22,571 nt of DNA from a virus, in the IMG/VR virus record IMGVR_UViG_3300027668_000114, positions 1 to 22,571 of that record. The stretch is one strand, 5' to 3'. Every line of letters starts with the position of its first letter. Position 1 is the stretch's first letter. Of this stretch, positions 3,660-22,084 are shown in pieces. The notes beneath the pieces are model-generated. The model made no database searches. It worked only from the letters and a program-made list of their open reading frames with translations, and was not told the DNA's origin. The position numbers and the translations under genes were made by a program.

Positions 3660-3696
3660 CTCCCTGTTCGTTTCCGAGGCGGCAGGGAGTTTTTTT
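3660..3696 (+). terminator. Rho-independent terminator closing the rightward replication unit
   Basis: A perfect 7-bp stem, CTCCCTG (3660-3666) and CAGGGAG (3683-3689), with a 16-base loop is followed at once by seven T residues. It starts 15 bases after the stop codon of the 71-aa gene. Only the rightward strand has the T-run after the stem. On the other strand the downstream bases are mixed, so it should act mainly on the rightward transcript. The T-run touches the stop codon of the convergent 2149-aa gene at 3695. Confidence 0.9.
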
Positions 3697-6600
3697 ATTT
3701 AAAGAACCCAGAATCATCGTACTCAGATCGTTGCTCTTCTAACGTCCTTTTCATAAGGGGGCTAAGAGTAGTTCCATTATGCATCTTAGCTGTTGTTCTT
3801 TGATGACCTTTAAAGGATCTTAGCAATGACTCGTTATCTATTCTTGCGCTAGGATGTTTTTTACCAAACTCCCGCATTTCTTTCTTTATAGCTTTAGCTT
3901 CTGGGTAATCTCCTTGCCTCATGGACATATAAAACTTTTTAAGTAGCTTAGATCGTTCTTTTGTTACTGCTTTACTTATACCTTGCTCTATACCAGTCTG
4001 CTCTTGGGCAAAGGTATACCCCGAAGGTGGAAACCCTATCATGCCAGCAAAGAAGTCACCCGCTGTTAGATCGTCGTATATGACATCCCCACGTCTAGTC
4101 TGCATACTTCCATCTTTCTGAAAACGTCCTATGGGACTATTTCTTAGCACATTGGTTAGACCTGCGGGTAACGCGCTTTCTACACCCCGTTCTATTTCTC
4201 CGTCAGCAAAATCTTTTCCCGCACGAAAAAATCTTTTACCCGTACTAAAGGCAGGGCCACCAAGATAATGTCCTATATACTCTTCTATGGACGTAGAGTC
4301 TCTTTTATGATATCTATTTGCTTCAAATATTAAACTGTTTAGTCTAACGCGGGCTGAGAAGTCTACACCTAGGGCATCAACAAGTGGGCCTTTATACCAC
4401 CCTTCTTTGAAGTACTTTCTTACTACAGTATCCGCATCGTCCTCGTCATCGTCTAGGTACAAATCCATAGCTAGTGCTACTGCACCATATAACGGCATAC
4501 CTTGTATACCTGCTATTAATAGAGCCGACAAGTGAATGGCTCGTACTTGCGCCCATGCTATTTTCTTCTGTCGTAGACGCTCTTCTTTTTGGGTAGCTGT
4601 TTCATTTTTAGGGGGAGAGAACTGTAGAACTAAAGCTCTTGCACCCGTCTTAGCCATAGTGGTATACATACGTATGCCGTAGTTCTTGTACATAAACGCT
4701 ACACGCCCAAGCCCCTGTGAAGATATCCTAGAACCTGTCTCTAGCACTGCTCCACCGTTGTACTCCATAGATTTATACAACGCATCTTCTGAGGCTTCTA
4801 TTTCCATTTGTGGATCTGTTAACCTATCAGCTTTATCCTTTTTAACTTCTCTAGCTTGTATGGTTTCTAAGGACAAGTTGTACGAGGCTAACAATGTAAC
4901 TTGACGGTTAAACCGCTCTCCTGCGTTAAACATAATTGCAGATACCGCAGACACACTGTTTAAAACTTTCTCTGGTTTGTTACCACGGTTTATACGTCCC
5001 GAACTTTCCATCCCTAGCTTTTCTCTTACAGACTCAAAGGACGTAGTGCTTTCATCAAGCCCCATTGCATCTGATAGGTACGACTGTGTTAGATAGGATT
5101 GTTCAGAAGCTAGTTTGACTAGAGTAGTTAGAGGCTTGTACTTCTTTACAATATCGTCTGGTAAGCCTTTTCTTAGCTCGTAAGTAACTTCCCCAAAGTT
5201 TTTTGACCCCGCATCTTCGTTCATTGTTATATCAAAATAACTATCTATGGAGTTACCCGAACTAGCTACCATAGAAGAAGCGTCGATTATTGCCTTACCT
5301 GTTTTAATATGCCCAAACTCAGCCCCTAGCATAGGGGCGACAAACAAAGGTATTTGGCTAGTGTTAACAAGAGCAGACGAAGCGTTAAACCCTATGGTGT
5401 ATATAAAAGCTATTTGGTTAGCACTCTTTACATAACCCTCAAGAGTCTTGTCCTCCGCACCGTTTTTAGCAAACTTAGCCCTTTCTGCTAACTCAATGGC
5501 TATGTTTTTTATAGTAGTAGAGTTAAGATTGTTTCTGCCTAAATCTATGGCCTTTTCTTTTATCTGTTTTTCTATATCGTTTATCTCTTTTGTAGACTTT
5601 ATTCTCTCTACCTGTCTAGATAGGTCAAATACTTTGGCTCTCATAGAGTACAAGGCATCTTTTTTATACCCCGCCTGTCCAGTCCTGCTCTTAAACGACT
5701 TAGCAAAAGAAGTTTCTGGTAGAGAGTTAATAAACAAATTCATTACTTCGTCTTGAATTGTAGGGTCAACGCCTTTCTTGTCTAACGCAGTAAGTATATC
5801 GCTCACAAATCCAGTGTCAGGTGCATTCTTTCTAAAGTTTGCTGCTGTCAAATCCCCGTCTGAGAACTCTACGTTTATATGCCCAGAGGCTTTAGCGTCT
5901 GCAACGGCTTTATTCTGTTCTGCCCTTGTCTCATACATCTCCACAACATAGTTATCGCGGTCTTCTCGCATACCACTAAGGTCTGGCCCTATCGTCTGTG
6001 CAGGTGTGTAGGACACTTTAAATTTGCCTTCTCGCACTAGTGGAAAGTAAACATCTAAGGCGGTCTTATCAAACAGCTTATCAAACACGTTCTTTTGTAA
6101 ATCAACTGCCTCTTCACCAAATATTTCTTTCATACGAGTAGTAAGAACTTTCTTCAACCGCTCGTACTGTATCTTATAGGTGTCACGTATATATCTATAT
6201 TGGTCTTGCCCTGACTTTCCCAAAGCATCCCAACTCTTACGTTGTTCTTTCCAGACCATAAATTCGTCAGAGTTAGAGCCGTACTTCTGCCTTGCGGCGG
6301 TGGGGTCTGCTGTAGTTCCTATAGTAGGGTCTACTTGATAGATTGTGGCACCGTAATCTCTACCGTAAATAAGCTCGTCTAATATTTTAGCCTTCTCAGG
6401 GTTACCCGTAGTCCACTTGGCGGCTTTCTTTACACGCTCAGTCATAAGTTTGTCAGACTGATCCATCTTACCGCGCATACGTTGAATAGCTTTATGTAGG
6501 TCATCACCTAACACTCCAAACCCTTTTTCTTTAGCTATGTCTCCCAGAGCTTGAGTGTCTAATATTTGTAATGCGCCTCGGTTAGATGCTATGTTAGTGA

Positions 6601-9600
6601 TCATATCTAAAACAGTAGCACCTTCTTTTCCGAAGTCTTCTCTAAACTTCTTCGTGGGAGGAGCAAAACTTTTTTGTACGTCACCTAACTCTCGAAGTAT
6701 TTTCTGTACTCCATCACGTGTAGACATCTTGTAGGTAGAACCAGCACCTATAGTAGCCGGGGAGGTAGATAAAATTGATATGATAGCTTGGTCAGCCGCT
6801 TCCAATGCCGAACCCAGAGGCTTAGTCTCCATACCAATAAGTCTACGTATAAAGTTAGATACTGATCTAAAGAACCTATCTAACGCATTATTAGCAGAGC
6901 CGTCTGGGTGCATACCTGCTAGCTTTTGTTGGAACTCAGAGTTACTTAGGGTTTCAGCTACAAACTCTTTTAGATCCTTAGAGCCGTATGCAGTGTCTAA
7001 GTCTCCCTTTAGCCCGTTGTACAAAGCAGTAAGTTGTTTTGTCATGGGGTGCGAGGCGTTATCTAGGGTAATATCTACCACCGCGTGAGTAGACTCATGC
7101 AATATGGTATGTACGTTAGCGGCTTTGTTTATGTATATAGTACCGTTAGAGGCTAGGTACGAATCTCCCTCGGTAATTTTAACTTTAGTGCTACCCACAG
7201 CCTCTGACAAAACACGGGCTATCTGCTTTACACGCCTGTCTTCACTTACGGCACTCAATGCTTTAAGAGCACCGCTAAGATTATCTTTCTTTAGTAGAGT
7301 CTTTACGTTAGGAGGCGCTACCCCATCTATCTCATTTACAAAGTTCTGAGGAAGTTGAGAAGTACCCCCAAGAGAATCTATAACTTGGGAGTTATCGTCT
7401 TCTGAATAATCTGAAATGCCATCATCAGATTCTGAAAATTCTTCTTCTTCTACAACTGATGTTTCTTCGGCTGTAGGTATTGGTTCAGGTTTATCTTTTA
7501 AAGCATTGTTAAAACGTAATCTTCTTTTACCTTTTAGATTTGCTATTAACCGTTCAATAACTTGTGATTCGGTCTCTCCTTTAGCTATACCTGCCTCAAT
7601 CTCTTCTGCAATTATCCGCTTACCTTCTATATTTGTAGAGGTTGCAACCCCCTCTGCTTGTTCCAACGCTTCTTTTCTCTTTGCGTTATTTCTCTCAGCG
7701 GTACGTATAGCAACTTCCTTTGTTATTTTAGCCGCCTCACTAACCCTTTGCCCTGTATTTATAGGTATACCTTCTTTCGCAAGCACGCCTCTATCTTTTA
7801 TGTCTGAGGGGGGTTTTTGATCTGTAGGAGTGAGTGTTTGATCTGTAGCTTCACCGGCAAACTTGTTTATGTACTCTTGCGTACCATCAGGTACGGGCTT
7901 ACGACTCTTCTCGTAGCCATCCCTTAGAAAAGTAGCTATCTGTTGGTTTGTTTCACCCTCACTGTCTTTTTTGAACGATTGAAATACCTTTATAAATCTT
8001 TCTTCTAAATCAAGTTTGTCTGTGAACTCCTTGTTAAGTTCAGGTACGTCAGCAGGTAGCCCAGTAAACTTGGCTTTGGGAGCAATAACCTTTTCTGCGG
8101 GTTTTATAGCTTCTACCGCACTAAGATTCTTTTGTGCAGCATCTATTTCTTGGTCTACCAGTTCATACGCTTCGTCAATATTGTACTTTTTGCCGCTATA
8201 CTTTCTTGACCCTTCCCCATCCAACGCTATTCCACGTCCGTTTTGCAGGGATCTTACCAACTTAGGCACGTCACTTAACGCTGGTGCATTTACAAGAGCT
8301 TTTTCTCCTTTTGCTGTTATGGCGAGCCTACGCTGCTCTGCTTCCGTTGGTGGCGTTGTAAATTTCTTATCTGTGTTGTCAGCAGCTAACTCATCTGTGG
8401 CTACCTCTACTGCTTGTCCATCTTTAACTAAAACTTGTTTAGCATATTCAACGTTATTGTTTATTTGTTCTCTTTGTTTAGCGACGGCGGCTGCTCTGGC
8501 TGCTGCTTCGGCTGCTAATGTAACAGCGTCTGGTTCTGCTCCTCCATCAAGACTTGCAGAGCCTTGCCTAGGCTCGTCCACTCCTCCTGCGTTAGCTTCG
8601 ATAATGTTTTCGCCACTAACGGAGGCGGCGGAGATTTCACCTTCTTCTGGGCCAGTAGTTGAAACGCTAGCTCCACTTCTTCCTGCGTCAGATAATACAG
8701 CATCTTCATCCACCGTTTTATAGTTCGTAGCTCTCTGATAGGCTTCTTCTACGACATCTTCAAGGTCACCTCTACCACGTCCCTCCAGTTGTTCTATTAA
8801 GCTCTCTCTGTTATCTACTCCCTGTGCTAAATCACTGTCTGCTATAGTTTGAATCTCAGCTATAATCGAACTATCATCTACCCTTTCCTCATTCTTAGTA
8901 GCATCGAGCCTTTCTTGATCGCCGTAAGTCAAATCAACAGCCATCTCTACTTCAGATTCTAACTCGCTAAAAGCATTATCAAAAGTTGCTCCTTCACCAA
9001 TTCTTGTTTTTATTTCTTCTGCAATATTTAAAGAAAACCCTACTTCGTCTACATCACTTTGAAGACTTTTTATTTTTTCTTGGCGTTCTTGGTCTTGACC
9101 CATTGCAGCGAGTGTTTCGTCGTCTGCTTTAGAAAGTTCTGTCTCTCCTGCCACTGCGTCAACGTCTACTTCTGTGTCTGCATCTACTACACTATCAAGA
9201 TCAGCCGCAGTTACTGCTGCAACATCTTCTTCACTTACTTCTGTTTCTTCAGGTTGAGTAGCACCAAGTCCTTCTCCGGTAACTACTTCACTAGGTTCGG
9301 AGCTTTCAGTGTCAGTAGTTCTAGGCTTACGCTTACCAGAAAGCACGTCTACAAGTGCTTGGAATATACCACCAGCAGTACCGCCTATAGCTGCTTCTTC
9401 AAGTACCCCAGCATCTACAAGTTCTTTTTCTGGGTTGTACCCTTGCTCTACAAGATTCTGAAGTATAGCGGCTGCACCCTCCTGCACCCCTTCTACTGCG
9501 ACTGTACCTGCGGCACTCTGTATTCTACTTTTTATACCCTCTATAGATTTAGGGCCAAGTTTGTCTAGTACTTTTTGTACTGCGGGAATCTGTAAGTTTT

Positions 9601-10144
9601 TAAATAACCTACCGAGAGGGAATAGTTCTGTAGCACCTACAGCAACACCTTTTAAAGCTGCAATACCACGGTCTTCTTCACTTGTTCCAAAAGAACGAGC
9701 GCGTTCACTTGCCTCGCCAGCACCTGCGCCAGCAGCTAAAACACCAGCAAGAGGTAATCCACCAACAAGGGCGGTTGGAGCAAGGGCTGCTATAGATCCA
9801 ATAGCAAGGGGGATTTGAAACGCTAAAGACTCTTCATCAGCCCCTTTTAGGGCTTCTATATCAAAAAAGTCTTTAATTTTTTTACGGGCTACAAGTTCGT
9901 CTTCTTCTTCAAGAGCAGTAGCTACACCTAGCGCACTAGTCTCAAGAAATCCTGTAACACCTCTACCAAGACCCTTGCCTATGTTTTCAAATATACCTGC
10001 ATCCGAAGCAGGTTCCCCAAACCTACTAATGGCTTGCGCTCTTTGGTAGTCAATAAGTTTCTCTTGTAACCTATACGCTTTATCTGTTTCTCCAGAACGA
10101 GCGTAAAAAGAGATAGCTTTTTTTAACTCCGCTATTGTAGCCAT
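3695..10144 (-). CDS. Giant polyvalent-type virion protein with HExxH metallopeptidase motif, 2149 aa
   Basis: Probably packaged in the virion and injected with the DNA. The first 40 residues form a short helical hairpin (SGETDKAYRLQEKL), a start seen in many large phage proteins. Residues about 100-265 are Gly/Ala-rich and hydrophobic with an EGVQEGAAAILQN element, suggesting membrane contact. Residues about 270-470 are strongly acidic and Asp/Glu/Thr-rich, likely an extended linker. A zinc-peptidase motif HESTH lies at 1016-1020, and KEFVAE (E1060, E1064) follows 40 residues on as a possible third ligand. This matches the metallopeptidase domain described in phage and plasmid polyvalent proteins. 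The C-terminal half is helical with hydrophobic segments near 1570-1600 and 1866-1900, resembling large-polyvalent-protein-associated domains such as LPD38. It is the last gene of the leftward unit, 7 bases after the 642-aa gene, with only a weak, distant AGGTGA upstream. Peptidase substrate is unknown. Confidence 0.75.
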   Translation of the reverse strand: MATIAELKKAISFYARSGETDKAYRLQEKLIDYQRAQAISRFGEPASDAGIFENIGKGLGRGVTGFLETSALGVATALEEEDELVARKKIKDFFDIEALKGADEESLAFQIPLAIGSIAALAPTALVGGLPLAGVLAAGAGAGEASERARSFGTSEEDRGIAALKGVAVGATELFPLGRLFKNLQIPAVQKVLDKLGPKSIEGIKSRIQSAAGTVAVEGVQEGAAAILQNLVEQGYNPEKELVDAGVLEEAAIGGTAGGIFQALVDVLSGKRKPRTTDTESSEPSEVVTGEGLGATQPEETEVSEEDVAAVTAADLDSVVDADTEVDVDAVAGETELSKADDETLAAMGQDQERQEKIKSLQSDVDEVGFSLNIAEEIKTRIGEGATFDNAFSELESEVEMAVDLTYGDQERLDATKNEERVDDSSIIAEIQTIADSDLAQGVDNRESLIEQLEGRGRGDLEDVVEEAYQRATNYKTVDEDAVLSDAGRSGASVSTTGPEEGEISAASVSGENIIEANAGGVDEPRQGSASLDGGAEPDAVTLAAEAAARAAAVAKQREQINNNVEYAKQVLVKDGQAVEVATDELAADNTDKKFTTPPTEAEQRRLAITAKGEKALVNAPALSDVPKLVRSLQNGRGIALDGEGSRKYSGKKYNIDEAYELVDQEIDAAQKNLSAVEAIKPAEKVIAPKAKFTGLPADVPELNKEFTDKLDLEERFIKVFQSFKKDSEGETNQQIATFLRDGYEKSRKPVPDGTQEYINKFAGEATDQTLTPTDQKPPSDIKDRGVLAKEGIPINTGQRVSEAAKITKEVAIRTAERNNAKRKEALEQAEGVATSTNIEGKRIIAEEIEAGIAKGETESQVIERLIANLKGKRRLRFNNALKDKPEPIPTAEETSVVEEEEFSESDDGISDYSEDDNSQVIDSLGGTSQLPQNFVNEIDGVAPPNVKTLLKKDNLSGALKALSAVSEDRRVKQIARVLSEAVGSTKVKITEGDSYLASNGTIYINKAANVHTILHESTHAVVDITLDNASHPMTKQLTALYNGLKGDLDTAYGSKDLKEFVAETLSNSEFQQKLAGMHPDGSANNALDRFFRSVSNFIRRLIGMETKPLGSALEAADQAIISILSTSPATIGAGSTYKMSTRDGVQKILRELGDVQKSFAPPTKKFREDFGKEGATVLDMITNIASNRGALQILDTQALGDIAKEKGFGVLGDDLHKAIQRMRGKMDQSDKLMTERVKKAAKWTTGNPEKAKILDELIYGRDYGATIYQVDPTIGTTADPTAARQKYGSNSDEFMVWKEQRKSWDALGKSGQDQYRYIRDTYKIQYERLKKVLTTRMKEIFGEEAVDLQKNVFDKLFDKTALDVYFPLVREGKFKVSYTPAQTIGPDLSGMREDRDNYVVEMYETRAEQNKAVADAKASGHINVEFSDGDLTAANFRKNAPDTGFVSDILTALDKKGVDPTIQDEVMNLFINSLPETSFAKSFKSRTGQAGYKKDALYSMRAKVFDLSRQVERIKSTKEINDIEKQIKEKAIDLGRNNLNSTTIKNIAIELAERAKFAKNGAEDKTLEGYVKSANQIAFIYTIGFNASSALVNTSQIPLFVAPMLGAEFGHIKTGKAIIDASSMVASSGNSIDSYFDITMNEDAGSKNFGEVTYELRKGLPDDIVKKYKPLTTLVKLASEQSYLTQSYLSDAMGLDESTTSFESVREKLGMESSGRINRGNKPEKVLNSVSAVSAIMFNAGERFNRQVTLLASYNLSLETIQAREVKKDKADRLTDPQMEIEASEDALYKSMEYNGGAVLETGSRISSQGLGRVAFMYKNYGIRMYTTMAKTGARALVLQFSPPKNETATQKEERLRQKKIAWAQVRAIHLSALLIAGIQGMPLYGAVALAMDLYLDDDEDDADTVVRKYFKEGWYKGPLVDALGVDFSARVRLNSLIFEANRYHKRDSTSIEEYIGHYLGGPAFSTGKRFFRAGKDFADGEIERGVESALPAGLTNVLRNSPIGRFQKDGSMQTRRGDVIYDDLTAGDFFAGMIGFPPSGYTFAQEQTGIEQGISKAVTKERSKLLKKFYMSMRQGDYPEAKAIKKEMREFGKKHPSARIDNESLLRSFKGHQRTTAKMHNGTTLSPLMKRTLEEQRSEYDDSGFFK
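6920..7147 (-). other. Zincin (HExxH) peptidase segment of the 2149-aa protein
   Basis: Residues about 1000-1075. The sequence reads HTILHESTHAVVD, with H1016 and H1020 as metal ligands and E1017 as the catalytic base. DLKEFVAETLSNSEFQ follows, whose E1060 or E1064 could be the third ligand as in gluzincin-like peptidases. The spacing and the EFVAE block are as in the MPTase-PolyVal group. All required residues appear intact. Confidence 0.7.
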
Positions 10145-10151
10145 ATATTAT

Positions 10152-12080
10152 TTAATCACCTGCCGCTGCTTGCATGGCTGCAACTGCCGTTGCTATATCT
10201 CCATCATTATCCTCAACTTCACCTTGATCTTGACCTTGTTTAGCATCGCTCAAAATCTGTCCACTTAACCCATCCGTAATATTAGTATACATAACTTTGG
10301 CTTTGGCTTCTTCAAGTTGAACTACAGCATACATAGCGTCATTCATTTCTTCCCTAGTTAACTCTGCCTCTGGATCTGCCGCACGTTTAGCCATTGCCGC
10401 TTGCCCATTCATAAATCTCTCATCCGTAGCTAAACTAGCTTTTATGTCTGCCTCTAATGCCATTAAATCTCTGTATAAATTTACATCTATCTTTCTATTC
10501 TCAATATTAGCCATTATTTCAGCGCGTCTATCAGCACTATCATCTCTAAGAGAAGTTAGTTTCCTATCTATCTGAGCGTCGTTAGCTTGCCGAGCCTCTT
10601 TAGCTAGCGCTGTTGCATTTTGCACATCTGCTACATTAACACTAGATAATATACTCATAGCGTTTGATCGTTCAGTAGCAAGAGTTCCCCATATCTTAGC
10701 TTTAAGTTCATTGCCCTTGTTTACAATAGCTAAGTCTGTACCTATCTTAGATTGCTCTAAGTTAAAGTATTGAACAAGACTGTTACGTTGGGCATTTTCT
10801 GCGCTATCCGTATAGCTGTTTCTAGCCGCATTTATTCCGGCTGAACCCGCACCAGCTACACCCATAGCTTCATAAGCTCTTTTTGCGGCTTCTCGCTCTA
10901 TCCTAGCAGGGTCATATCTCTTAGCATCGTATGCCTCTATATCATCTATCCTGCGTTGTAGAGTGCTAGCTACACCTGTGCGATCTGAATCTTGGTAGAA
11001 GTCATCTCGTTCTTGATTAGCTAAAGCCTTAGGATCTTGGCTTATTTGTTTTTGTAAAATCGTATTTATACCAGCCTCTTTGTTTCTATCAAAAATTGAA
11101 GTACCAGATATATCTGCCCTAGGATCAAAATCTTTGCCTTGAGCAATAAGTTCATCTTTTTGTCTTTGGATATCTAGTCTTCGTTCTTCTAAAGGATTAA
11201 CAGGAGGATCTTTTTTCTTTTCTTCTACTTTTTTTCTTGTACCTGTAACTGTAGTTGGTATAGGATCTGTTGATGTCTCGTCTGTTAAAGCGTCTATTGC
11301 CTTACCAGCTCCTGCTAGACCTAACCCTGCCGCTCCTATCTTTGTAGGACTAAGTTCCCTTGACCCCTGCACGACAGATACAGCCCTAGGATCTCTTGCT
11401 GATGCTGTAGGGGATCTAGCTGGAGGGGTTTTACGTGGCCCTGCTCTAGTAAAAAGGTTTGCTGCTTTTGCCGCAATGTCTCCTATCTTACCGGCTGCGC
11501 CGGGAAGGTTTTTAAGGTTTTTAAGTTTACCTATTGCTGATCTTGCAAGATTACCTAAACCCCCTGATTTTTTTGCTTCTTTAAGTTGATCAACAGCAAT
11601 AATTCCCCCACTAATTAAGCCCGCTGCGTTTTCTGTAAGAAAATCTATCATTCCTCCTTCGTCAGCATCTTCATCGTTATGCTCGCCACCATGCGCGTAC
11701 CCCATAATGCCACCTTGAGCGGCCATTTGAGGGGGTTGAGCCGCAGGTATACCTTGTCCTTTAGCAGTGCGCTGCATGTTTTTCTGTTGTTGTTTTTGCC
11801 GTTGTCCTAAAATTCCAGATACCTGCTTAGACATATCATCTTTAGTCATAGCCAAGACTTCTTGCTCGCGTTGCTGTGCTATGGTGTTAGGATTCTGATC
11901 CATCTTTAACTGCATGTCACGAGCAGCGGCTTCTTTATCAGACTTAACTTTTTGAAGGGCGAGCAAATCTAACAGTTGTTGATTCTGTTGATATCTTTTT
12001 TCTAATGCTTGAGGATTACCACGATAGGCATCAGCTTTTTGATTGACTAGCTCGTTTATTCCGCCTTGTTGCATGACCAT
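10152..12080 (-). CDS. Internal virion / ejection protein candidate, 642 aa
   Basis: Function not known with certainty; position and composition suggest an internal virion protein ejected into the host. The N-terminus (ALEKRYQQNQQLLDLLALQK, then a Gln/Lys-rich coiled coil to about residue 110) is of a type common in marine podovirus structural proteins. Two QGGI motifs occur, at residues 5-8 and 122-125, the second within MAAQGGIMGYAHGGE. A Gly/Ala-rich stretch with possible membrane helices follows (about 148-215, including AAGLISGGIIAVDQL). The C-terminal half (about 290-620) is charged, helical coiled coil rich in Ala, Arg and Asp, with no cysteines seen. Its start shares one base with the previous stop (TAATG), preceded by a strong GGAGGAGAG ribosome binding site at 12083-12091. 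A second ATG two codons in is an equally possible start. No enzyme motif was found. Confidence 0.7.
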   Translation of the reverse strand: MVMQQGGINELVNQKADAYRGNPQALEKRYQQNQQLLDLLALQKVKSDKEAAARDMQLKMDQNPNTIAQQREQEVLAMTKDDMSKQVSGILGQRQKQQQKNMQRTAKGQGIPAAQPPQMAAQGGIMGYAHGGEHNDEDADEGGMIDFLTENAAGLISGGIIAVDQLKEAKKSGGLGNLARSAIGKLKNLKNLPGAAGKIGDIAAKAANLFTRAGPRKTPPARSPTASARDPRAVSVVQGSRELSPTKIGAAGLGLAGAGKAIDALTDETSTDPIPTTVTGTRKKVEEKKKDPPVNPLEERRLDIQRQKDELIAQGKDFDPRADISGTSIFDRNKEAGINTILQKQISQDPKALANQERDDFYQDSDRTGVASTLQRRIDDIEAYDAKRYDPARIEREAAKRAYEAMGVAGAGSAGINAARNSYTDSAENAQRNSLVQYFNLEQSKIGTDLAIVNKGNELKAKIWGTLATERSNAMSILSSVNVADVQNATALAKEARQANDAQIDRKLTSLRDDSADRRAEIMANIENRKIDVNLYRDLMALEADIKASLATDERFMNGQAAMAKRAADPEAELTREEMNDAMYAVVQLEEAKAKVMYTNITDGLSGQILSDAKQGQDQGEVEDNDGDIATAVAAMQAAAGD

Positions 12081-13741
12081 TACTCTCCTCCTCCAATTAC
12101 TTCTTTAGCTTTTTCAGTAACTTGCTCTGTTACAGCATCACTACTACCCCCAAACAAACTACCAAGCCCATACCTGTTAAATAGAGTATTAATCGCATTA
12201 TCTCCACCGGCTAATTGAGACAACGTGCTAGGAGTAGAGTAAGACACTGACTGAGCTTCTAACGGTAATCCCTGTAGCAACGATTGCTGGTACTGCACTT
12301 GTTTGTAAGGGAAATCTCTTTCTTCTTCAAACTGAGATATATCGGCACTAATACCCTGTTGTTCTATATTACGTTGTTTGTCACCTGCCGTACCTTGCCC
12401 ACCAAGGACTTCAAACCCAAAGTTATTACGGGCGGCTTGCTCTTGGTTAAACTGCGCTAATCCTCTATCATAAGCAGAAGCGTATCCTTGTCCTGTTATA
12501 TCAGCTATACGATCCCCTAACGCACGATTACCTTCAGCTTCCATAACCGCTTGCCGTGAGCCTCCAAAAGCCCCTGCCTTAGTTAATCTACCTGCATCAG
12601 ATATGCGTTGTATTTCTGACTGTCTCCTAGCTTCATCTAACTGAGGATTAATAGAAGCCATTAAATATGGGTTCATATATTGTGTAGCAGCGGCAGAATC
12701 AAACCTGTTAACTCCCATGTTAGTAGGAGTTTGTAAATTACCAATGCCTGTAAAGGCTTGTTGCTGTAGATCAGAAACTCCAGCAGTAAGTGGGCCTTGA
12801 AACTCTTGGTAAGGTGTCTCAGCTAAAGCAGCGCCTTTACCTAACATGTCCGTTACGTATGGCCCTACGTAATTAGATAGCGAAGACTCTGAACCAGCAA
12901 TTTGATTTTCAGGATTATTCGCTCCTGTGTTGCCCATATTAGCAGTTGTAGGAGTACTTTTAATATCTGTGTCAGCTACTGCTACTCCATCACCAGTACC
13001 AAAATTAGTTTTAGGTACAACATTTTGGTAAACAGACCCACCACCTTGCAGGTTCATAATGCCACCCTGCGCCATCTTAGGCATAAACTGATTAGGGTTT
13101 ATTTGCTTGCCTTGTTTAGGGTTACCAGTACGCGCTTTACGTACATTATCCATCATGCCGTGCAGTTCTTTCGCACCTGCATCAGAGTTACCATTACCCA
13201 AATGACTTACTACATCAGCGGGTATAACAAATTCACCATCACTTAGACGTGCTTCTTGTGCACCATCAATAGTTGCAGGTACTAGATCAGCCATACCGTC
13301 AGTAGTACCACCTAGGTAGTAGCCTTGGTTTGCATTAGCAATACCCCCCATAGCCATAGCTTGAGGAGCTATATTACGTTGCTGTAGTTGAGCGCGTTGT
13401 GTAGCGGCTCTTGCTTGTGCTTCTGCAATACTAGGAGGCGTTGTTTCTTTAAAGCCCCCCGGTTTTTCTGCATACTGAGTATCGGTAAAGTACCTTTGGT
13501 TCTCCCCACCTCTACGCCGATTAGGGTCAGTAGGTACACGATCTCGCACAACTTCGTAAGACGGTATACCGCCTTGATAACCTACATTAGGTATATTAGG
13601 TTGAGATAACCCTAACTCTTTTGCCAGCAATCCCGACCCTACTCCTACAAGAGCATTTCCAATTGCTTGGCCTCCTTGAGTGCTATTAACAGTATTTAAA
13701 GCCTGAGTACCGACACTTTTAAAACCTTCCCACCATCCCAT
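12080..13741 (-). CDS. Virion protein with tape-measure-like GEFV segment, 553 aa, probable ejection protein
   Basis: Probable internal or tail-associated virion protein. The N-terminus (WWEGFKSVGTQAL, then GNALVGVGSGLLAKELG) looks amphipathic and membrane-seeking. Residues 128-240 contain two A-x-G-G-I motifs (AMGGI at 130-134, AQGGIM at 224-229). Between them lies a block with DLVPA (152-156) and DGEFVIPADVV (G169, E170, F171, V172), followed by GNGNSDAGAKELHGMM. Similar VPA...GEFV blocks are found in siphophage tape-measure proteins. The C-terminal half has YMNPYL followed by a helical region with GAFGGSRQAVMEAEGNRAL and ITGQGYASAYDRG, a pattern recurring in podovirus structural proteins. 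The gene starts on TGATG with the stop of the 1838-aa gene and has a good AGGAG ribosome binding site inside that gene's end. The exact location in the particle cannot be told from sequence. Confidence 0.7.
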   Translation of the reverse strand: MGWWEGFKSVGTQALNTVNSTQGGQAIGNALVGVGSGLLAKELGLSQPNIPNVGYQGGIPSYEVVRDRVPTDPNRRRGGENQRYFTDTQYAEKPGGFKETTPPSIAEAQARAATQRAQLQQRNIAPQAMAMGGIANANQGYYLGGTTDGMADLVPATIDGAQEARLSDGEFVIPADVVSHLGNGNSDAGAKELHGMMDNVRKARTGNPKQGKQINPNQFMPKMAQGGIMNLQGGGSVYQNVVPKTNFGTGDGVAVADTDIKSTPTTANMGNTGANNPENQIAGSESSLSNYVGPYVTDMLGKGAALAETPYQEFQGPLTAGVSDLQQQAFTGIGNLQTPTNMGVNRFDSAAATQYMNPYLMASINPQLDEARRQSEIQRISDAGRLTKAGAFGGSRQAVMEAEGNRALGDRIADITGQGYASAYDRGLAQFNQEQAARNNFGFEVLGGQGTAGDKQRNIEQQGISADISQFEEERDFPYKQVQYQQSLLQGLPLEAQSVSYSTPSTLSQLAGGDNAINTLFNRYGLGSLFGGSSDAVTEQVTEKAKEVIGGGE

Positions 13742-16700
13742 CAGTCTTCTCCTAATAGTCTTAGCAATTCGTTATTTCTACTTAACAATCCACCCTGCGC
13801 TGCGGCTCTTGGTTGCTGTCTTATTTGCCGTGCTTGTGGTTGTATAGCTGGCACTACATTGCTAGCCCCATAAGGGCTAAATAAATTTGTTCTTGCATTA
13901 GGGGCAAATACACTATCTCCACCTATATCGTACAAGTAATTTATATTTGCCGTACCCATTTGTTGAGTACTAGCTTTACCCCCAGTTAAATCTGAAGATC
14001 CTAAAATATCTCTAAGTAGTTCTTCTTCGTTACCCCGCTGTCGGGTAGATTCTATCTGCTGTTGTGTATTTAAATTTTGTTGCGTGTTTAAATCTTGTGC
14101 TGTTTGTATATCTTGTTGCGTTTGTTGGTTTACTTCGTATAACCCTGTTGGGTTAAACATACGTGCAAAGTCAACGTCTTGCCCAGCCTGTGCTTGTTCT
14201 AACATGGTCTGATCGTTTATGTCAATCACACCATCGTCATTTACATCATACTGTAGTTGTTGTTGGGTTAGAACTGCTAATTCTGTATTCGCTTCTTGTT
14301 GAGCTATGACATCTGCAACAAAATCTATGTCAGCATCAGTTACTTGCCCTACGTCTTTACCCACGTAATCGGCTACTAACTGAATATCTTCGCCTAGTTC
14401 TTGTTGCCCTTGAATAACAGTGCTTTCTACTTCTCCAAGCCTAGTAAGCAGGGTCTGCTCTGTCTCACCAATACGGTTTAACAGTTCTGTTCTAGTAGTG
14501 CCTAGCTGTGTAGATACTTCGTTAATAGCTGTACTAAGAGCTTGATCTCGCGCTATACCGGCAGACTCAATTTCATTAGACCGTTCTAGAATAGCATCTG
14601 TAGAACCTGCAATATCTGTTTGAAGCGTAGTTGTTTGGTCGTCAATATCTGTTTGAAGCGTAGTTGTTTGGTCGTCAATATCTGTTTGAAGCGTAGTTGT
14701 TTGGTCGTCAATAGCATCGGTAATAGTACTTGTTTGGGTATCAATAGCATCAAGAATATTACCTTCTGTAATACCTAATTGGGTAGCAATGCTCTCTATA
14801 GCTTGGTCGCGGGTTAGCCCTGCCGCTATTAAGTCTTTAATTCCTTCCTCTACGTCTGTTAGGCTATCTGCACTTAAACCATAATAGTTAATTACATTAG
14901 TAGTATTGGTAGTAGTATTGGTGGTAGTGCTGTTGTCTGTGTTGTAGGTATTATTAGTAGTAGAGCTGTTGTCTATGTTATTGGTGGTGGTTGTATTGCC
15001 ATCGCCAGTGTTAGTAGTTGTGCTATTAGTAGTTTCTAATCCATTGCTATCAGTTACAACAGTGGTTACAGTGCCTTTACCATCGTCAGTAACTACAGTT
15101 GTACTACCGTCAACCCCAGTAGTTGTAGTAGTAGTACTGCCGTCTCCTCCAGTAGTTGTAGTAGTAGTTTCATTATCATCAGGGGGAATCACTTTTCCGT
15201 CTGGATCGTAGTTAGTCTGTACTCCAGTGGTAGAGTTTGTAGTTGAGTAAGAACCATCACCGTTGTATTGGTAAGTGGTTATATCACCTCCACTATCTGT
15301 GGTGCTAGTAACTTGATTGTCTGAGTTTTTAGTTTCTGAAGAACCATCATCGTTGTACGTAGTGGTATTACCTTGACCATCTATACTAGAAACACGGTTT
15401 CCATTATTGTCAAATACATCAGTTCCTCCTGTATCTTCATTGGGAATGCTAGTTAATCCATCTTCAGAGGGGTCGTTAGGGTACTTATCGCTATTATCAC
15501 CAAGCCCATCGCCGTCTGTATCTACACTTTCAGAGGGGTCGTTAGGAAAAGCATCATCTTCATCTAATACCCCATCCTCATCTGTATCTACACCCTTAGT
15601 GCCATCAGTTACATCAATTACACCAGTTTCAAAGCCATCAGGTATATTGTTTCCGTTAAGATCTGTTACTTTTGTGCCGTCTCCCAACAAATCAAGTAAC
15701 CTGTCATTGGTGTTAAAAGAGTCAGGGTACTGTATGGCTAATTCTGCAACTTGGTCATCTGTTAGTGTAATACCATTAGATGCAGCCCATGCGTTTACTT
15801 CATCAGGGGTTAACTGCCGTGGGTCTACATATGTGTCTATAGCACTTCCAAGACTTTCATCGTTAAACTCATTACCTATATATGCATCTATTTCTGCGGA
15901 TGTGGGTTGGTAGTCTAATCCAACAAATGCTTCGTTGGCTTCTTGAGGAGAGGTATACGCTTCGTCATATACGTTATCTAGCAATACTGCATGTACACGC
16001 GGAAAACTTTCTATATCTATACCCGCATCTTCCATAACCTGCGTAATACCTTCCGCAGTTAATTTTGGAGAGCCATCGGGGTTACGTTGCATAGCTTCGG
16101 CAACTTTGGGGTTCCAGTCTGACAGTAAAGAAGCTGCCGCTAATGATCCACTTGTTACTCCTGCACTTACAACAGCGGCTTGAGTACCTGCATGAGCAGC
16201 AGAATCAAAAACTTCTTCAGTAGTTATAGAAGGGTCAAAGTTATTTTTTGCTACTGTTTTTATAAACCCTTCTATATAAAACTCTTCTCCATACTCACTA
16301 AGACCTTCCTTTCCTAAAGCACCTGCCCCTTCACCAGCTTCTTTAGCTACTTTTTTTATGCCTTCAGTTAAATATTCAGTTACATTGTCTCCAAGAACTT
16401 TTTTAATTATTAACTTATCGGCAGCTAGTCCTCCAAGTGCTAAAGACCCTGTTGCTAAAGCCATACCCATGCCAACAGCTTCTGGCACTAACGCAGCAGC
16501 ATTTTCTCTAAACTCGTCTTGTTTACTTTCAAGTATATTACTAACGTATTCTTTTTGTTGTTCTGCACTAGGGTAATTACCGTTGGCATCCGCAGTTTTC
16601 CTAAACTTCGCAAACTCGGAACTATCTTGTATTCTTTTAAACTCTACTTCGTTTTGAGCGCCTAAATAACTGTCAAATGCTTGCTTGCCCGCGCCTCCCC

Positions 16701-19257
16701 CAGCTTCAGCTATATCAGTAGCTGCCGCCGTTGACAGTCCTACAAACTTACTTACTATTTTAGCGGTAGCGGCAGATATAGCTCCTGCGGCAGCGGCTGG
16801 CCCTAATACTACAGATGCAGCACTTGCGGCTAATGCCCCTACTGCAAGAGGTACACCTTCTTGGATAATCTCTTGACCAATTTGAACACCTACACCTAAA
16901 GGATTTTCTTTTGCTGCTCCCCAATAAAACTTAGCAGCATTAGCCATAGAGTTCCCAATCTCATTATCAAACAAGTCTTCCTTTACATACTCTTCTTGCA
17001 TTTTGTCTAAATTTTCTAGTGCTTGCTTAACATTATCTGTATTAGAGCTATCTCCTAAAGCGATTAAATTATTAGCTAGTTTTGCTATTTCTGTATTATC
17101 AGGGTACTTATCTCCAATAGTTAGCAAAGCATTTAAGGTGCCTAATAGCTCGCCTCCTGATGACAAGATCATAGCTACGCTTTGTTGTGCTGCACTATTC
17201 TCCCCGCCAAAAAGTTTTTCTTGTTTAGAGTCATCTACTAAAAACTGAGCCGTATTGTAGACAGCCGCCCCTAAAATTTGACTTAGAGACTGTGCTGTAT
17301 CTTCATTCTCGCTAGCTCTAACAATTTCTACAGCAAACTCTTTAGGTTTTTCTTCTCTAAATAAATCTAGTGCAGCTATAAATATCTCTTTAAACCCTAC
17401 AGATTCGCCGTTTAAGTTTGTAAACATACCTGTCTGAGGATCTACTTCAAATGCACCCTCCGGTACAGGTACACCAGCCTGTGTCATCGTAGTGCCTAGC
17501 TGAACCATAGTGCCTGATTCATAAGCTCTAATTTCTTCACGAGTTAATATGTTACCGTATTTGCCTCTTTTTGGTGACCCATCAGGGTTATAAGGGTTAA
17601 CTGGATCTGAAGGGGCGTTAAGTACTGCATCTCCTAGTATAATAAGATCAGAAATACTAAAAGGCCCGCCATCTTCCCGTGTCATTTCAGCACCGGCACC
17701 CCCGCCTACTTCAAGAGTAACGTCAAAGGGTAGTGGTAAATTAGGGAAAACCTCTCCTAAAGTTGTAGGTATAGGCGGTATTGGAGGCACGGCGCTAGCT
17801 AACTGTACATTTATACCGTCAATAATTCCGGGGGCAGCACGTAGCCAGTCAGACGTGTGTAAAGTCTCACCTGATAGTCCTTTAATAGCTGTATAAGTAG
17901 CACCTATTATCGGCCCAATCCCCGGAATCATAGTTATTATGTTCACAATAGGATCAAGAGTATCAAAGAAACTAGGGTCAAAGTCGTCTGTTCTTGTACC
18001 AAAACCGTTGGCTGCACGACCTACATCTTGAGAGTTTTTATATTTAGTAAGTGGGTCATCTGACGTATCATCAGGGTAGAAATTAGCATTTATTAAATCC
18101 ATGCTTGGAATTAACTCTCGTGACCCAGACGTGTCTAAGTATACTTCCCCTTCTATTTCTACAAATTTATAGTTATCAGGCGTTTTCTCTGGATCGTAGT
18201 TAGAGTTAACTTCTTGTATGTAAAGCCCTTCGTACTCTTCTTTTGTTAAAGACCCCTTACTTTGCAAATCACTCAAATACAGTAATTTGTCCTCGATAGG
18301 TAAGTATGCATAAATCTCTTGGTATATGTCAGGGTCGGTAGCGCGTAGCTCTCCAAGTTTATAAGTAAACTCATCAAACATTTCTATAGAACGTTCAGCC
18401 GTCATAACTTGAACATTATATGCAACATTTCCTTCAGCAAAGACTGAGTTTAATCCTTTAGCATTTTCCCAATACTCGTTAGGTTTATCTGCTACTTTTT
18501 CTAGTTCCCCCCATAATGCATCTGGATCTACTCCAGCACGTAACGCTTTTACAAATTCCCCCCATGCAATTCCTTTAGACATAGATGGTATATCTTGAAA
18601 GAAATTAGGGTCAGAGGCGTTTACAACGTCAGCAAAATATGTACGTAACACTTCTTCTTTTTCGGGCGTAAACCAATCTTGTTCGGCAATAGTCTCTCCC
18701 GACAAGGTTCTTATTTTAGTAGGGTCATACAAAGTAGTTGTATTGTTAACTACTTGATCAAACTGGCTGGGTAAAGTGCTAGCGTCAAAATTAGGGTTAG
18801 GGACAAGCACTTCTAACTCAGGATTCCAAAAATCTTCTGACGTAGTATTTTTAGCTAGGGTATCTTCAGGTGTTATACCTATAATTGGCGGAGTTCCTAC
18901 CGAATACTCCATTGCTTGAGCTAAAAGGTCTCCAATATCATTATCAGGATCACCGTAAATCTCGTCTACGTCTGGCATAGAGGAAACACTGGGCATACTA
19001 CTATTTAGCATCGTATTAGCAAAAGCTGCGTACTCAGGAGGAAACCACTCAGGTAAAGCCAGATTACCTGACCCATACTGCCCTCGGTTTGGAAAACGCT
19101 CTTCTGCATACTCTTCAGAAAAACGATCACGAGAAGCTGTAGACTCCCAATCTAGATACGCTTGAGTCTCAGATGTAAGAGGTATATAAGTTTCAAACTC
19201 TCCTCCTTCTAAAAGGTCTAAGTAAGAGCTTGTATTTTCTACGTTCTCATCAGCCAT
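13741..19257 (-). CDS. Giant modular virion protein with calcium-binding repeats, RHS-like segment and coiled coil, 1838 aa
   Basis: Probable ejected or tail-associated virion protein; no single known function. The first 790 residues are acidic and soluble-looking with one hydrophobic patch (about 435-465, IITMIPGIGPIIGATYTAI). Residues about 800-1060 are Gly/Ala-rich and hydrophobic in several blocks, with EGLSEYGEE and DSAAHAGTQAAVVSAG, resembling the module near the start of the 2149-aa protein. Residues 1199-1268 hold thrombospondin type 3-like calcium repeats (DTDEDGVLDEDD, DTDGDGLGDNSD). Residues about 1270-1350 are RHS-like (DGQGNTTTYNDDGS). Residues about 1360-1456 are almost all Thr, Asn, Gly and Asp. 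A coiled coil follows with three identical 11-residue repeats, then an EF-hand-like loop DVNDDGVIDIND (1671-1682), a Gln-rich helix and a C-terminal AAAQGGLL (1818-1825). It couples to its neighbours by one-base stop/start overlaps on both sides. Confidence 0.75.
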   Translation of the reverse strand: MADENVENTSSYLDLLEGGEFETYIPLTSETQAYLDWESTASRDRFSEEYAEERFPNRGQYGSGNLALPEWFPPEYAAFANTMLNSSMPSVSSMPDVDEIYGDPDNDIGDLLAQAMEYSVGTPPIIGITPEDTLAKNTTSEDFWNPELEVLVPNPNFDASTLPSQFDQVVNNTTTLYDPTKIRTLSGETIAEQDWFTPEKEEVLRTYFADVVNASDPNFFQDIPSMSKGIAWGEFVKALRAGVDPDALWGELEKVADKPNEYWENAKGLNSVFAEGNVAYNVQVMTAERSIEMFDEFTYKLGELRATDPDIYQEIYAYLPIEDKLLYLSDLQSKGSLTKEEYEGLYIQEVNSNYDPEKTPDNYKFVEIEGEVYLDTSGSRELIPSMDLINANFYPDDTSDDPLTKYKNSQDVGRAANGFGTRTDDFDPSFFDTLDPIVNIITMIPGIGPIIGATYTAIKGLSGETLHTSDWLRAAPGIIDGINVQLASAVPPIPPIPTTLGEVFPNLPLPFDVTLEVGGGAGAEMTREDGGPFSISDLIILGDAVLNAPSDPVNPYNPDGSPKRGKYGNILTREEIRAYESGTMVQLGTTMTQAGVPVPEGAFEVDPQTGMFTNLNGESVGFKEIFIAALDLFREEKPKEFAVEIVRASENEDTAQSLSQILGAAVYNTAQFLVDDSKQEKLFGGENSAAQQSVAMILSSGGELLGTLNALLTIGDKYPDNTEIAKLANNLIALGDSSNTDNVKQALENLDKMQEEYVKEDLFDNEIGNSMANAAKFYWGAAKENPLGVGVQIGQEIIQEGVPLAVGALAASAASVVLGPAAAAGAISAATAKIVSKFVGLSTAAATDIAEAGGGAGKQAFDSYLGAQNEVEFKRIQDSSEFAKFRKTADANGNYPSAEQQKEYVSNILESKQDEFRENAAALVPEAVGMGMALATGSLALGGLAADKLIIKKVLGDNVTEYLTEGIKKVAKEAGEGAGALGKEGLSEYGEEFYIEGFIKTVAKNNFDPSITTEEVFDSAAHAGTQAAVVSAGVTSGSLAAASLLSDWNPKVAEAMQRNPDGSPKLTAEGITQVMEDAGIDIESFPRVHAVLLDNVYDEAYTSPQEANEAFVGLDYQPTSAEIDAYIGNEFNDESLGSAIDTYVDPRQLTPDEVNAWAASNGITLTDDQVAELAIQYPDSFNTNDRLLDLLGDGTKVTDLNGNNIPDGFETGVIDVTDGTKGVDTDEDGVLDEDDAFPNDPSESVDTDGDGLGDNSDKYPNDPSEDGLTSIPNEDTGGTDVFDNNGNRVSSIDGQGNTTTYNDDGSSETKNSDNQVTSTTDSGGDITTYQYNGDGSYSTTNSTTGVQTNYDPDGKVIPPDDNETTTTTTGGDGSTTTTTTGVDGSTTVVTDDGKGTVTTVVTDSNGLETTNSTTTNTGDGNTTTTNNIDNSSTTNNTYNTDNSTTTNTTTNTTNVINYYGLSADSLTDVEEGIKDLIAAGLTRDQAIESIATQLGITEGNILDAIDTQTSTITDAIDDQTTTLQTDIDDQTTTLQTDIDDQTTTLQTDIAGSTDAILERSNEIESAGIARDQALSTAINEVSTQLGTTRTELLNRIGETEQTLLTRLGEVESTVIQGQQELGEDIQLVADYVGKDVGQVTDADIDFVADVIAQQEANTELAVLTQQQLQYDVNDDGVIDINDQTMLEQAQAGQDVDFARMFNPTGLYEVNQQTQQDIQTAQDLNTQQNLNTQQQIESTRQRGNEEELLRDILGSSDLTGGKASTQQMGTANINYLYDIGGDSVFAPNARTNLFSPYGASNVVPAIQPQARQIRQQPRAAAQGGLLSRNNELLRLLGED
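14611..14709 (-). repeat. Three perfect 33-bp tandem repeats inside the 1838-aa gene
   Basis: Units at 14611-14643, 14644-14676 and 14677-14709 are identical base for base. Each adds 11 residues (DDQTTTLQTDI in one register) to a coiled coil without changing frame. Diverged copies flank them: DAIDTQTSTIT before and AGSTDAILERS after. Eleven-residue periodicity fits a hendecad coiled coil. DNA-level identity suggests recent expansion. Confidence 0.95.
14885..15175 (-). repeat. Thr/Asn-rich low-complexity coding stretch
   Basis: Residues about 1361-1456 of the 1838-aa protein consist almost only of Thr, Asn, Ser, Gly, Asp and Val, built from ACT/ACA/ACC and AAT/AAC codons. On the plus strand this appears as runs of GTAGTAGT and GTTGTAGT. 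It is degenerate, not a perfect microsatellite. It links the RHS-like segment to the coiled coil and probably forms an extended or beta-solenoid-like spacer. Confidence 0.8.
15454..15663 (-). other. Thrombospondin type 3-like calcium-binding repeats in the 1838-aa protein
   Basis: Residues 1199-1268 contain successive D-x-D-x-D-G-x-x-D loops: DLNGNNIPDG, DTDEDGVLDEDD and DTDGDGLGDNSD. The last two are each followed by an FPNDPSE or YPNDPSE spacer. This is the classic pattern of TSP3 calcium repeats found in bacterial surface proteins. Two short DNA stretches coding the NDPSE spacers are nearly identical (near 15466 and 15531). Confidence 0.85.
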
Positions 19258-19580: not shown

Positions 19581-19774
19581 TAGCTTATAAACCAGCTAGT
19601 AGCTTCAGCTTGAAGCACGAGCGTATCGTTACGTAGGGCTTTGTCTAGTTGATTAAAGTACAGACGTAGAGCGTTGTTAAACTTCTCAAACTCTAATCTA
19701 GAGTACTCGTTAGGGGGGCTAGGCAGGAGTGGAGCAACAAACTCTACTCCGTAGTTCGTACAGTCTGTAGACAT
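19580..19774 (-). CDS. Small protein of unknown function, 64 aa, in the tail gene block
   Basis: Not recognised as a characterised family. It has a Pro-rich N-terminal part (EFVAPLLPSPPNEYSRLEF) followed by one amphipathic helix (KFNNALRLYFNQLDKALRN) and a short C-terminal strand (TLVLQAEATSWFIS). It is coupled through TAATG to the 616-aa gene, whose 3' end supplies a GGGAG ribosome binding site, and through TAATG to the 107-aa gene. The helix plus Pro-rich arm suggests a small assembly or adaptor protein that oligomerises, but that is inference from shape and position only. Confidence 0.7.
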   Translation of the reverse strand: MSTDCTNYGVEFVAPLLPSPPNEYSRLEFEKFNNALRLYFNQLDKALRNDTLVLQAEATSWFIS

Positions 19775-21631: not shown

Positions 21632-22084
21632 CTATATGCTAGTCCAGTCTTTATTCTGCCATAGTAATGCTTCTGCTTCTCTACGTCTAACAAGTCCGTC
21701 TAGCACCTTACCTCCAGCCCTGTTCCAACGCTTTATCTGATGGGGTATATCAGCACGGCTGCTGTCAGTATCGTCATTGATACGAACCAGTAAAGTAGAT
21801 TCAGAAAGGTTACCTCCACCAAGATTGTATACCCAAGACACGAGCGCATCGAACTGATGCTGCTGAAGAGGTACATTGACCTGTTTGTGTACAATCTTCT
21901 CAAATTTAAATAGGTCGTCTGCAAGTGAAGTCTCAGCCTCGTCCTGCGTACAGGTAGCTCCTTCTTTAACTCCCTTAGTTGTTCCAAAACCGATTGTCCA
22001 TACTCCCGCACTACACTGATATGCATCTAACCTACAGCCCTCAAATTTTTTAATAAGGGCTATGCCCTCGCCACTAGTTTTCAT
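21632..22084 (-). CDS. Endolysin, GH24 lysozyme (T4/P1/lambdoid type), 150 aa
   Basis: Muramidase that cleaves the glycan strands of peptidoglycan at the end of infection. The catalytic signature is clear: KKFEGCRLDAYQCSAGVWTIGFGTT, with E15, C24 and T30 spaced as E-8-C-5-T. This is the variant of the T4 E-8-D-5-T triad seen in P1 Lyz and phage 21 R. The downstream helices carry QQHQFDALVSWVYNLGGG and a C-terminal LVRRREAEALLW, standard for the family, and the length is normal. There is no signal peptide or SAR domain at the N-terminus (MKTSGEGIALIKK), so it should depend on a holin to reach the periplasm; a holin lies upstream. Its start lies inside the 3' end of the 47-aa gene (11-base overlap). 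Confidence 0.95.
   Translation of the reverse strand: MKTSGEGIALIKKFEGCRLDAYQCSAGVWTIGFGTTKGVKEGATCTQDEAETSLADDLFKFEKIVHKQVNVPLQQHQFDALVSWVYNLGGGNLSESTLLVRINDDTDSSRADIPHQIKRWNRAGGKVLDGLVRRREAEALLWQNKDWTSI

What the first reader, a model, noticed from the sequence alone, without database searches (positions are those of the whole stretch)
6920..7147. Intact HExxH peptidase inside a probably injected protein
HESTH at 1016-1020 with a downstream EFVAE block is a complete zinc-peptidase signature inside a 2149-aa polyvalent-type protein. Polyvalent proteins of phages and plasmids are thought to enter the recipient cell and counter defences or remodel it. The peptidase could act in maturation of the neighbouring giant proteins, on peptidoglycan-associated proteins, or on a host defence factor once inside.
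Basis: partly seen in the sequence, partly recalled or inferred. Interest (0 to 1): 0.6.

Follow-up and report, generated by a model that had tools for sequence, protein, structure and literature searches.

The report
Zinc peptidase in phage ejection protein
A giant protein that this short-tailed phage probably shoots into its host carries an intact, strongly conserved zinc-peptidase domain of a kind already described in injected phage proteins; the same domain sits in well-studied phage ejection proteins, where it is usually labelled an 'endolysin'.

Summary
HESTH lies at aa 1016-1020 (nt 7085-7099, minus strand) of a 2149-aa ORF, with the third-ligand Glu at 1060. In 84 aligned sequences H1016, E1017, H1020, Tyr1053, E1060 and E1064 are invariant, although the search seeds did not contain HExxH, and the domain is under strong purifying selection. 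A confident model (pLDDT 92) is a zincin. Its best structural matches are the tetrameric ejection protein of phage PhiM1 (Z 10.0) and the C1 domain of N4 virion RNA polymerase (Z 7.7), then Pro-Pro endopeptidases and lethal factor (about 4). The rest of the protein is a PLxRFG/LPD39/DarB-like polyvalent scaffold ending a conserved four-gene cassette. Best reading: an M34-like gluzincin carried intact in the virion, ejected, and acting in the infected cell; the substrate is unknown. Iyer et al. (2017) already described zincins in polyvalent proteins, so this is a new member of a known kind. Side result: the same zincin is in the PhiKMV/KP34/PhiM1 'internal virion protein with endolysin domain', where that label looks wrong. 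Self-cleavage before packaging is less likely, because in PhiM1 and N4 the domain stays attached.

The parts
3695..10144 (-). P0001, 2149-aa polyvalent-type, probable ejection protein
   Evidence: ORF; PLxRFG, LPD39 and DarB-like matches; orthologues in the same gene order
6755..7312 (-). zincin domain, aa 945-1130
   Evidence: AlphaFold2 pLDDT 92.1; VIA-align Z 10.0 to PhiM1 TEP, 7.7 to N4 gp50 C1; conservation
7085..7099 (-). HESTH, aa 1016-1020: two zinc-ligand His and catalytic Glu1017
6986..6988 (-). Tyr1053, invariant, placed like the catalytic Tyr of PPEP enzymes
   Evidence: 84 of 84; 36 residues after the catalytic Glu, 7 before the ligand Glu
6953..6967 (-). EFVAE, aa 1060-1064: Glu1060 third zinc ligand, Glu1064 invariant
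9275..9994 (-). conserved N-terminal block aa 51-290 with membrane-like segments at aa 109-143 (nt 9716-9820)
   Evidence: conservation and hydropathy
7325..9247 (-). hypervariable linker aa 300-940
   Evidence: 4-15% identity per 50 aa over most of it, many gaps
6074..6424 (-). LPD39, aa 1241-1357
   Evidence: PF18858, 29.2 bits against cut-off 27
3758..6052 (-). PLxRFG region, aa 1365-2129
   Evidence: NF032893, E=1.6e-72, 245 bits against cut-off 100; DarB-like PHROG 10089
10152..12080 (-). P0002, 642-aa cassette neighbour, function unknown
   Evidence: no family match; conserved order
12080..13741 (-). P0003, 553-aa cassette neighbour, function unknown
   Evidence: no family match; conserved order
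13741..19257 (-). P0004, 1838-aa cassette neighbour with a membrane-like segment at aa 801-827
   Evidence: no family match; hydropathy; conserved order
19774..21624 (-). P0006, 616-aa virion structural (stabilisation/nozzle-type) protein upstream of the cassette
   Evidence: PHROG 3287, E=2.7e-69; phage stabilisation-protein relatives

Best explanation
The domain is a zinc-dependent endopeptidase (gluzincin, working like M34/PPEP enzymes: His1016, His1020 and Glu1060 hold the metal, Glu1017 activates water, Tyr1053 stabilises the intermediate) built into the largest ejection protein of a podovirus. Shown: signature, conservation, predicted fold, homology to ejection-protein zincins, cassette position. 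Inferred: the protein is packaged with the domain attached, is threaded through the tail ahead of or with the DNA, anchors through its N-terminal hydrophobic block, the zincin refolds, and it then cuts a protein in the envelope or cytoplasm of the infected cell. The target is a host protein or one of the ejection proteins; a host target is slightly preferred.
For: All three metal ligands, the catalytic Glu and the Tyr are invariant in 84 sequences under strong purifying selection. The fold matches the zincins of PhiM1 TEP and N4 vRNAP, both encapsidated and ejected. Those relatives keep the domain attached in the virion or in the full-length protein. Polyvalent scaffold and conserved ejection-type cassette.
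Against: No activity, metal or virion data for this phage. N4 and PhiKMV copies lack the Tyr. In ArdC, a plasmid zincin, the active-site Glu was dispensable for anti-restriction. Other gp16-type proteins do without the domain. Structural similarity to the proven peptidases PPEP and LF is weak on its own (Z about 4).
Confidence: 0.55

Rival explanations
1. Self-processing: the zincin cuts its own polypeptide (for instance in the aa 300-940 linker) or its three cassette neighbours before, during or just after packaging, releasing functional pieces.
For: Proposed for polyvalent proteins, from the processed phage P1 DdrB protein. The long variable linker before the zincin could be a cleavage region.
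Against: PhiM1 TEP retains the domain in the mature virion; N4 gp50 is packaged unprocessed and was purified full length. No conserved cleavage-site block is seen in the linker.
Confidence: 0.2
2. The domain no longer works as a peptidase: it is a structural ejectosome module, or a metal enzyme of another kind that uses the same HExxH scaffold.
For: The N4 authors note that HExxH also occurs in other enzymes; an alpha-ketoglutarate oxygenase HExxH domain appears at Z 3.1; ArdC activity without a working zincin.
Against: Invariance of all catalytic residues including Tyr and low dN/dS are hard to explain for a purely structural remnant; PPEP and LF rank above the oxygenase.
Confidence: 0.13
3. 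The domain opens the cell wall: it hydrolyses peptidoglycan cross-links or wall-linked protein to let the channel through.
For: No SLT transglycosylase was found in 10 related records, most about 60 kb, and no murein hydrolase domain in the cassette proteins; the PhiM1 authors call their copy endolysin-like.
Against: PhiM1 and PhiKMV carry the zincin beside a separate lysozyme-like domain in the neighbouring protein; the closest characterised enzymes of this fold cut proteins; divergent murein hydrolases could have been missed.
Confidence: 0.09

Closest known systems
Zincin-like MPTase domain of polyvalent proteins (Iyer et al. 2017, PMC5512222)
   Same: HExxH helix, Glu on the following helix, helix plus small beta sheet before them; fused to LPD-type domains in giant phage proteins; lethal factor as nearest classical fold
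   Different: Their 12 clades could not be compared directly (alignment not held); no Pfam zincin family reaches its cut-off here
N4 virion RNA polymerase gp50, C1 domain (2124-2375)
   Same: Zincin fold match Z 7.7; HELVH and ligand-type Glu; ejected protein
   Different: No RNA polymerase domain here; N4 lacks the Tyr seven residues before the ligand Glu; longer insert between HExxH and Glu (82 against 44 residues)
PhiM1 TEP gp48 / PhiKMV gp37 / KP34 gp48 (PHROG 342, internal virion protein with endolysin domain)
   Same: Best structural match (Z 10.0); HExxH, Tyr (not PhiKMV) and Glu; last and largest protein of a T7-like ejection cassette
   Different: 1,230-1,340 aa without PLxRFG or LPD39; beside a lysozyme-like neighbour
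Pro-Pro endopeptidases (PPEP-1, -2, -3) and lethal factor (M34)
   Same: HExxH, Glu ligand and Tyr at nearly identical spacing (36 residues from catalytic Glu to Tyr in PPEP-3 and here)
   Different: Fold match only Z about 4; secreted enzymes, not ejection proteins; no significant Pfam M34 match for the window
PLxRFG / DarB-like giant proteins (Skulduggery, Parlo, ZX1, Atu_ph08)
   Same: Share the LPD39/PLxRFG C-terminal region (21-26% identity)
   Different: Mostly 3,000-4,900 aa, with methylase or helicase annotations in some; this zincin not found by profile, two have HExxH of another type

Membership tests
Polyvalent-protein zincin MPTase (Iyer 2017) | HExxH with a downstream Glu ligand on the next helix | tested here: met
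   84 of 84; both on helices in the model
Polyvalent-protein zincin MPTase (Iyer 2017) | zincin core: N-terminal helix, three-stranded sheet, two C-terminal helices | tested here: met
   helix 40-52, strands 58-61, 66-67, 73-76, helices 81-96 and 128-137 in the model; fold matches
Polyvalent-protein zincin MPTase (Iyer 2017) | fusion with LPD or other polyvalent domains in a large phage protein | tested here: met
   LPD39 over cut-off, PLxRFG, DarB-like
Polyvalent-protein zincin MPTase (Iyer 2017) | placement in one of the 12 published clades | not testable with these tools
   clade alignments are on an external server
M34 peptidase family (lethal factor / PPEP) | catalytic Tyr 7 residues before the ligand Glu | tested here: met
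   Y1053/E1060, 84 of 84; M34 spacing from PDB titles and general knowledge
M34 peptidase family (lethal factor / PPEP) | match to the Pfam ATLF model over its cut-off | tested here: not met
   no match for the window; only E >= 0.003 in some relatives
T7 gp16-type ejection protein | last and largest gene of the ejection cassette downstream of tail-nozzle genes | tested here: met
   gene order in window and relatives
T7 gp16-type ejection protein | N-terminal lytic transglycosylase | tested here: not met
   no SLT match in P0001 or in 10 related records; the feature is phage-specific
T7 gp16-type ejection protein | present in the virion and ejected | not testable with these tools
   needs virion proteomics
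N4-type virion RNA polymerase | single-subunit RNA polymerase domain | tested here: not met
   only the zincin segment matches PHROG 2206
PLxRFG protein family NF032893 | score above the NCBIfam cut-off | tested here: met
   245 bits against 100

The most novel reading that the evidence does not exclude
One family of virion-delivered M34-like endopeptidases is spread over Schitoviridae vRNAPs, PhiKMV/KP34/PhiM1-type ejectosome proteins (labelled 'endolysin domain') and a large uncultured group of roughly 60-kb podophages, and cuts a host protein in the first minutes of infection; the endolysin label hides it in hundreds of phage genomes.
Probability: 0.35. Interest if true: 0.72.

Novelty: new member of a known kind. 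Interest (0 to 1): 0.42.

Why it matters
It ties an uncharacterised domain of environmental phages to domains with solved structures (PhiM1, N4), so the question 'what does the ejected zincin do?' becomes testable with one point mutation in phage N4 on E. coli K-12. If it cuts a host protein, it is an immediate, virion-borne host-takeover protease; if it trims the channel, it explains a step of genome entry. It also suggests that the 'endolysin domain' or 'exotransglycosylase' label on PHROG 342 proteins should be revised, including in many Klebsiella and Pseudomonas phages.

Tried and rejected
Foldseek against the PDB with the zincin model gave nothing significant; the second-look aligner and sequence profiles found the relatives. 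The C-terminal 1,029-aa model (pLDDT 77, pTM 0.75) gave no credible PDB match, so a shared fold with the N4 C2 region or T7 gp16 was neither shown nor excluded. First profile hits to phosphatidylinositol phospholipase C (E about 0.08) were judged chance: the aligned chain has no second His of HExxH. P0002-P0004 have no credible family match. Relatives of the nozzle protein (HTVC023P, DSL-LC04, CRP-902) do not carry this zincin in the stretches fetched. Phages SH-Ab 15519 and mellemsur have the gp16-like protein without HExxH, so the module is optional. The paper library gave no report of peptidase activity for PhiKMV gp37-type proteins, but it holds only open-licence papers. The sequences compared are mostly the best 80 of 329 viral hits, so more distant copies that lost the residues could have been missed.

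Full report
What is there. The minus-strand ORF 3695-10144 encodes 2149 aa. It has one HExxH, HESTH at aa 1016-1020 (nt 7085-7099), and EFVAE at 1060-1064 (nt 6953-6967); 0.008 HExxH are expected from composition.

Conservation. A scan of viral contigs with a 14-sequence profile, seeded on FQ..LA.M and EF..E patterns and not on HExxH, found 329 relatives, of which the best 80 were kept. In 84 aligned sequences H1016, E1017, H1020, Y1053, G1054, E1060, F1061 and E1064 never vary, while identity to the window domain is 35-57%. Because one seed contains EF..E, invariance of that motif is partly by construction; HExxH and the Tyr are in no seed. In the 11 close pairs with dS below 1, dN/dS of the domain is 0.03-0.16 against 0.21-0.57 in the linker. 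Along the protein there are three conserved blocks: aa 51-290 with hydrophobic segments at 109-143, aa 945-1130 (the zincin, with the best conserved 50-aa stretch of the protein), and aa 1200-2149; aa 300-940 is hypervariable.

Fold. AlphaFold2 on a 57-sequence alignment gives pLDDT 92.1 and pTM 0.88, with HESTH on one helix and Glu1060 on the next. VIA-align ranks the PhiM1 ejectosome protein TEP (8vb2, residues 278-515, Z 10.0, 141 aligned) and N4 vRNAP gp50 (residues 2124-2366, Z 7.7) first, then PPEP-2, PPEP-3 and lethal factor near Z 4. Sequence profiles agree: 8vb2 at E=9e-4 and 9sfn, a 1337-aa internal virion protein, at 5e-4. The aligned 9sfn stretch and its length match PhiKMV gp37; that identification is an inference. 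Nine of 14 members of the first alignment match the N4-type vRNAP family PHROG 2206; for the window the match lies on the zincin segment. Foldseek alone found no significant PDB match, but in the viral library it returned internal virion proteins, vRNAPs and polyvalent proteins with E down to 1e-13. PhiKMV gp37 residues 415-563 match the N4 segment at E=2.5e-17.

Catalytic competence. Tyr1053 lies 36 residues after the catalytic Glu and 7 before the ligand Glu; PPEP-3 has 36 (E153, Y189) and PPEP-1 35 (E143, Y178), residue numbers taken from the entry titles. The Tyr-x6-Glu pattern is in 84 of 84 window-type domains and in VAC_51, PPWS2, Nobby, KP34, PM16, FE11, Kadastiku and BB8, but not in N4 gp50 or PhiKMV gp37. 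This supports an active peptidase here; it does not prove one.

Context. P0001 matches PLxRFG (NF032893, E=1.6e-72), LPD39 and DarB-like PHROG 10089. It ends a cassette after a nozzle-type protein, a 107-aa protein and three large proteins, and converges on a DUF927 primase-helicase gene. The order P0004-P0003-P0002-P0001 followed by convergent P0005 is kept in relatives whose loci reach that far and where the neighbours are similar enough to be seen. Related contigs reach about 60-68 kb. No SLT transglycosylase was found in ten of these records; five of nine have a phage lysozyme gene, and the window has a lysozyme-like ORF at 21632-22084 (judged by eye).

How it most likely works. In PhiM1 the TEP is a tetramer of the pre-infection ejectosome and this domain is resolved within it. 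Full-length N4 gp50 (3500 aa) was purified and its C-terminal domain modelled. So in the two best-studied relatives the zincin is delivered attached, and the simplest reading is action after ejection. Whether the substrate is a host protein or an ejection protein cannot be decided here. ArdC is a caution: a zincin in a plasmid polyvalent protein whose metal-binding Glu was dispensable for anti-restriction.

What is known. Iyer et al. 2017 (PMC5512222) named the zincin MPTase the commonest polyvalent-protein domain, found it in N4 vRNAP with lethal factor as a nearest structure, and proposed self-processing, processing after entry, or attack on host proteins. The N4 preprint (PMC12633501) notes the HExxH of C1 without a function. 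The present case is therefore a new member of a known kind.

A point beyond the finding. The PhiM1 authors (PMC11440229) described TEP 268-528 as endolysin/exotransglycosidase-like, and PHROG 342 and many records carry 'endolysin domain' or 'peptidoglycan lytic exotransglycosylase'. That stretch is the best structural match of the zincin modelled here, has HExxH, and shows no Pfam murein hydrolase. Searches with the PhiKMV, KP34 and PPWS2 copies of the domain match 118, 326 and 70 phage records, with overlap. The label is probably wrong for this stretch. Residues were read in eleven such proteins: nine have HExxH (PhiKMV, VAC_51, PPWS2, Nobby, FE11, KP34, PM16, Kadastiku, BB8) and two do not (mellemsur, SH-Ab 15519).

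Noticed in passing
L092:6567-10580 (PhiKMV gp37), L096:1496-5194 (KP34 gp48), L093, L100; PHROG 342: The 'internal virion protein with endolysin domain' of PhiKMV/KP34/PhiM1-type phages carries this zincin (HExxH, mostly Tyr-x6-Glu) and no Pfam murein hydrolase; the endolysin label looks wrong.
   Followed up: partly
L091:9524-20026 (N4 gp50) and L092:6567-10580 (PhiKMV gp37): These two share the segment around the zincin at E=2.5e-17 but both lack the Tyr found in all other copies read; possibly a subgroup with a changed or lost activity.
   Followed up: no
window 14610-15168: Tandem repeats (33-bp units) inside P0004, encoding DQTTTLQTDI-type and Thr/Asn-rich stretches.
   Followed up: no
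L085:1283-13834: A 4,184-aa ORF in Candidatus Propionivibrio aalborgensis holds the same zincin at about residue 3000 (profile E=6e-25), probably a prophage giant protein.
   Followed up: partly
L086 (Skulduggery, ORF 6511-17598) and L087 (ZX1, ORF 5458-17061): Giant PLxRFG proteins hold a different HExxH type (HEAFH or HELFH followed by EELGAY) at about residues 2502 and 2775, not matched by the present profile.
   Followed up: no
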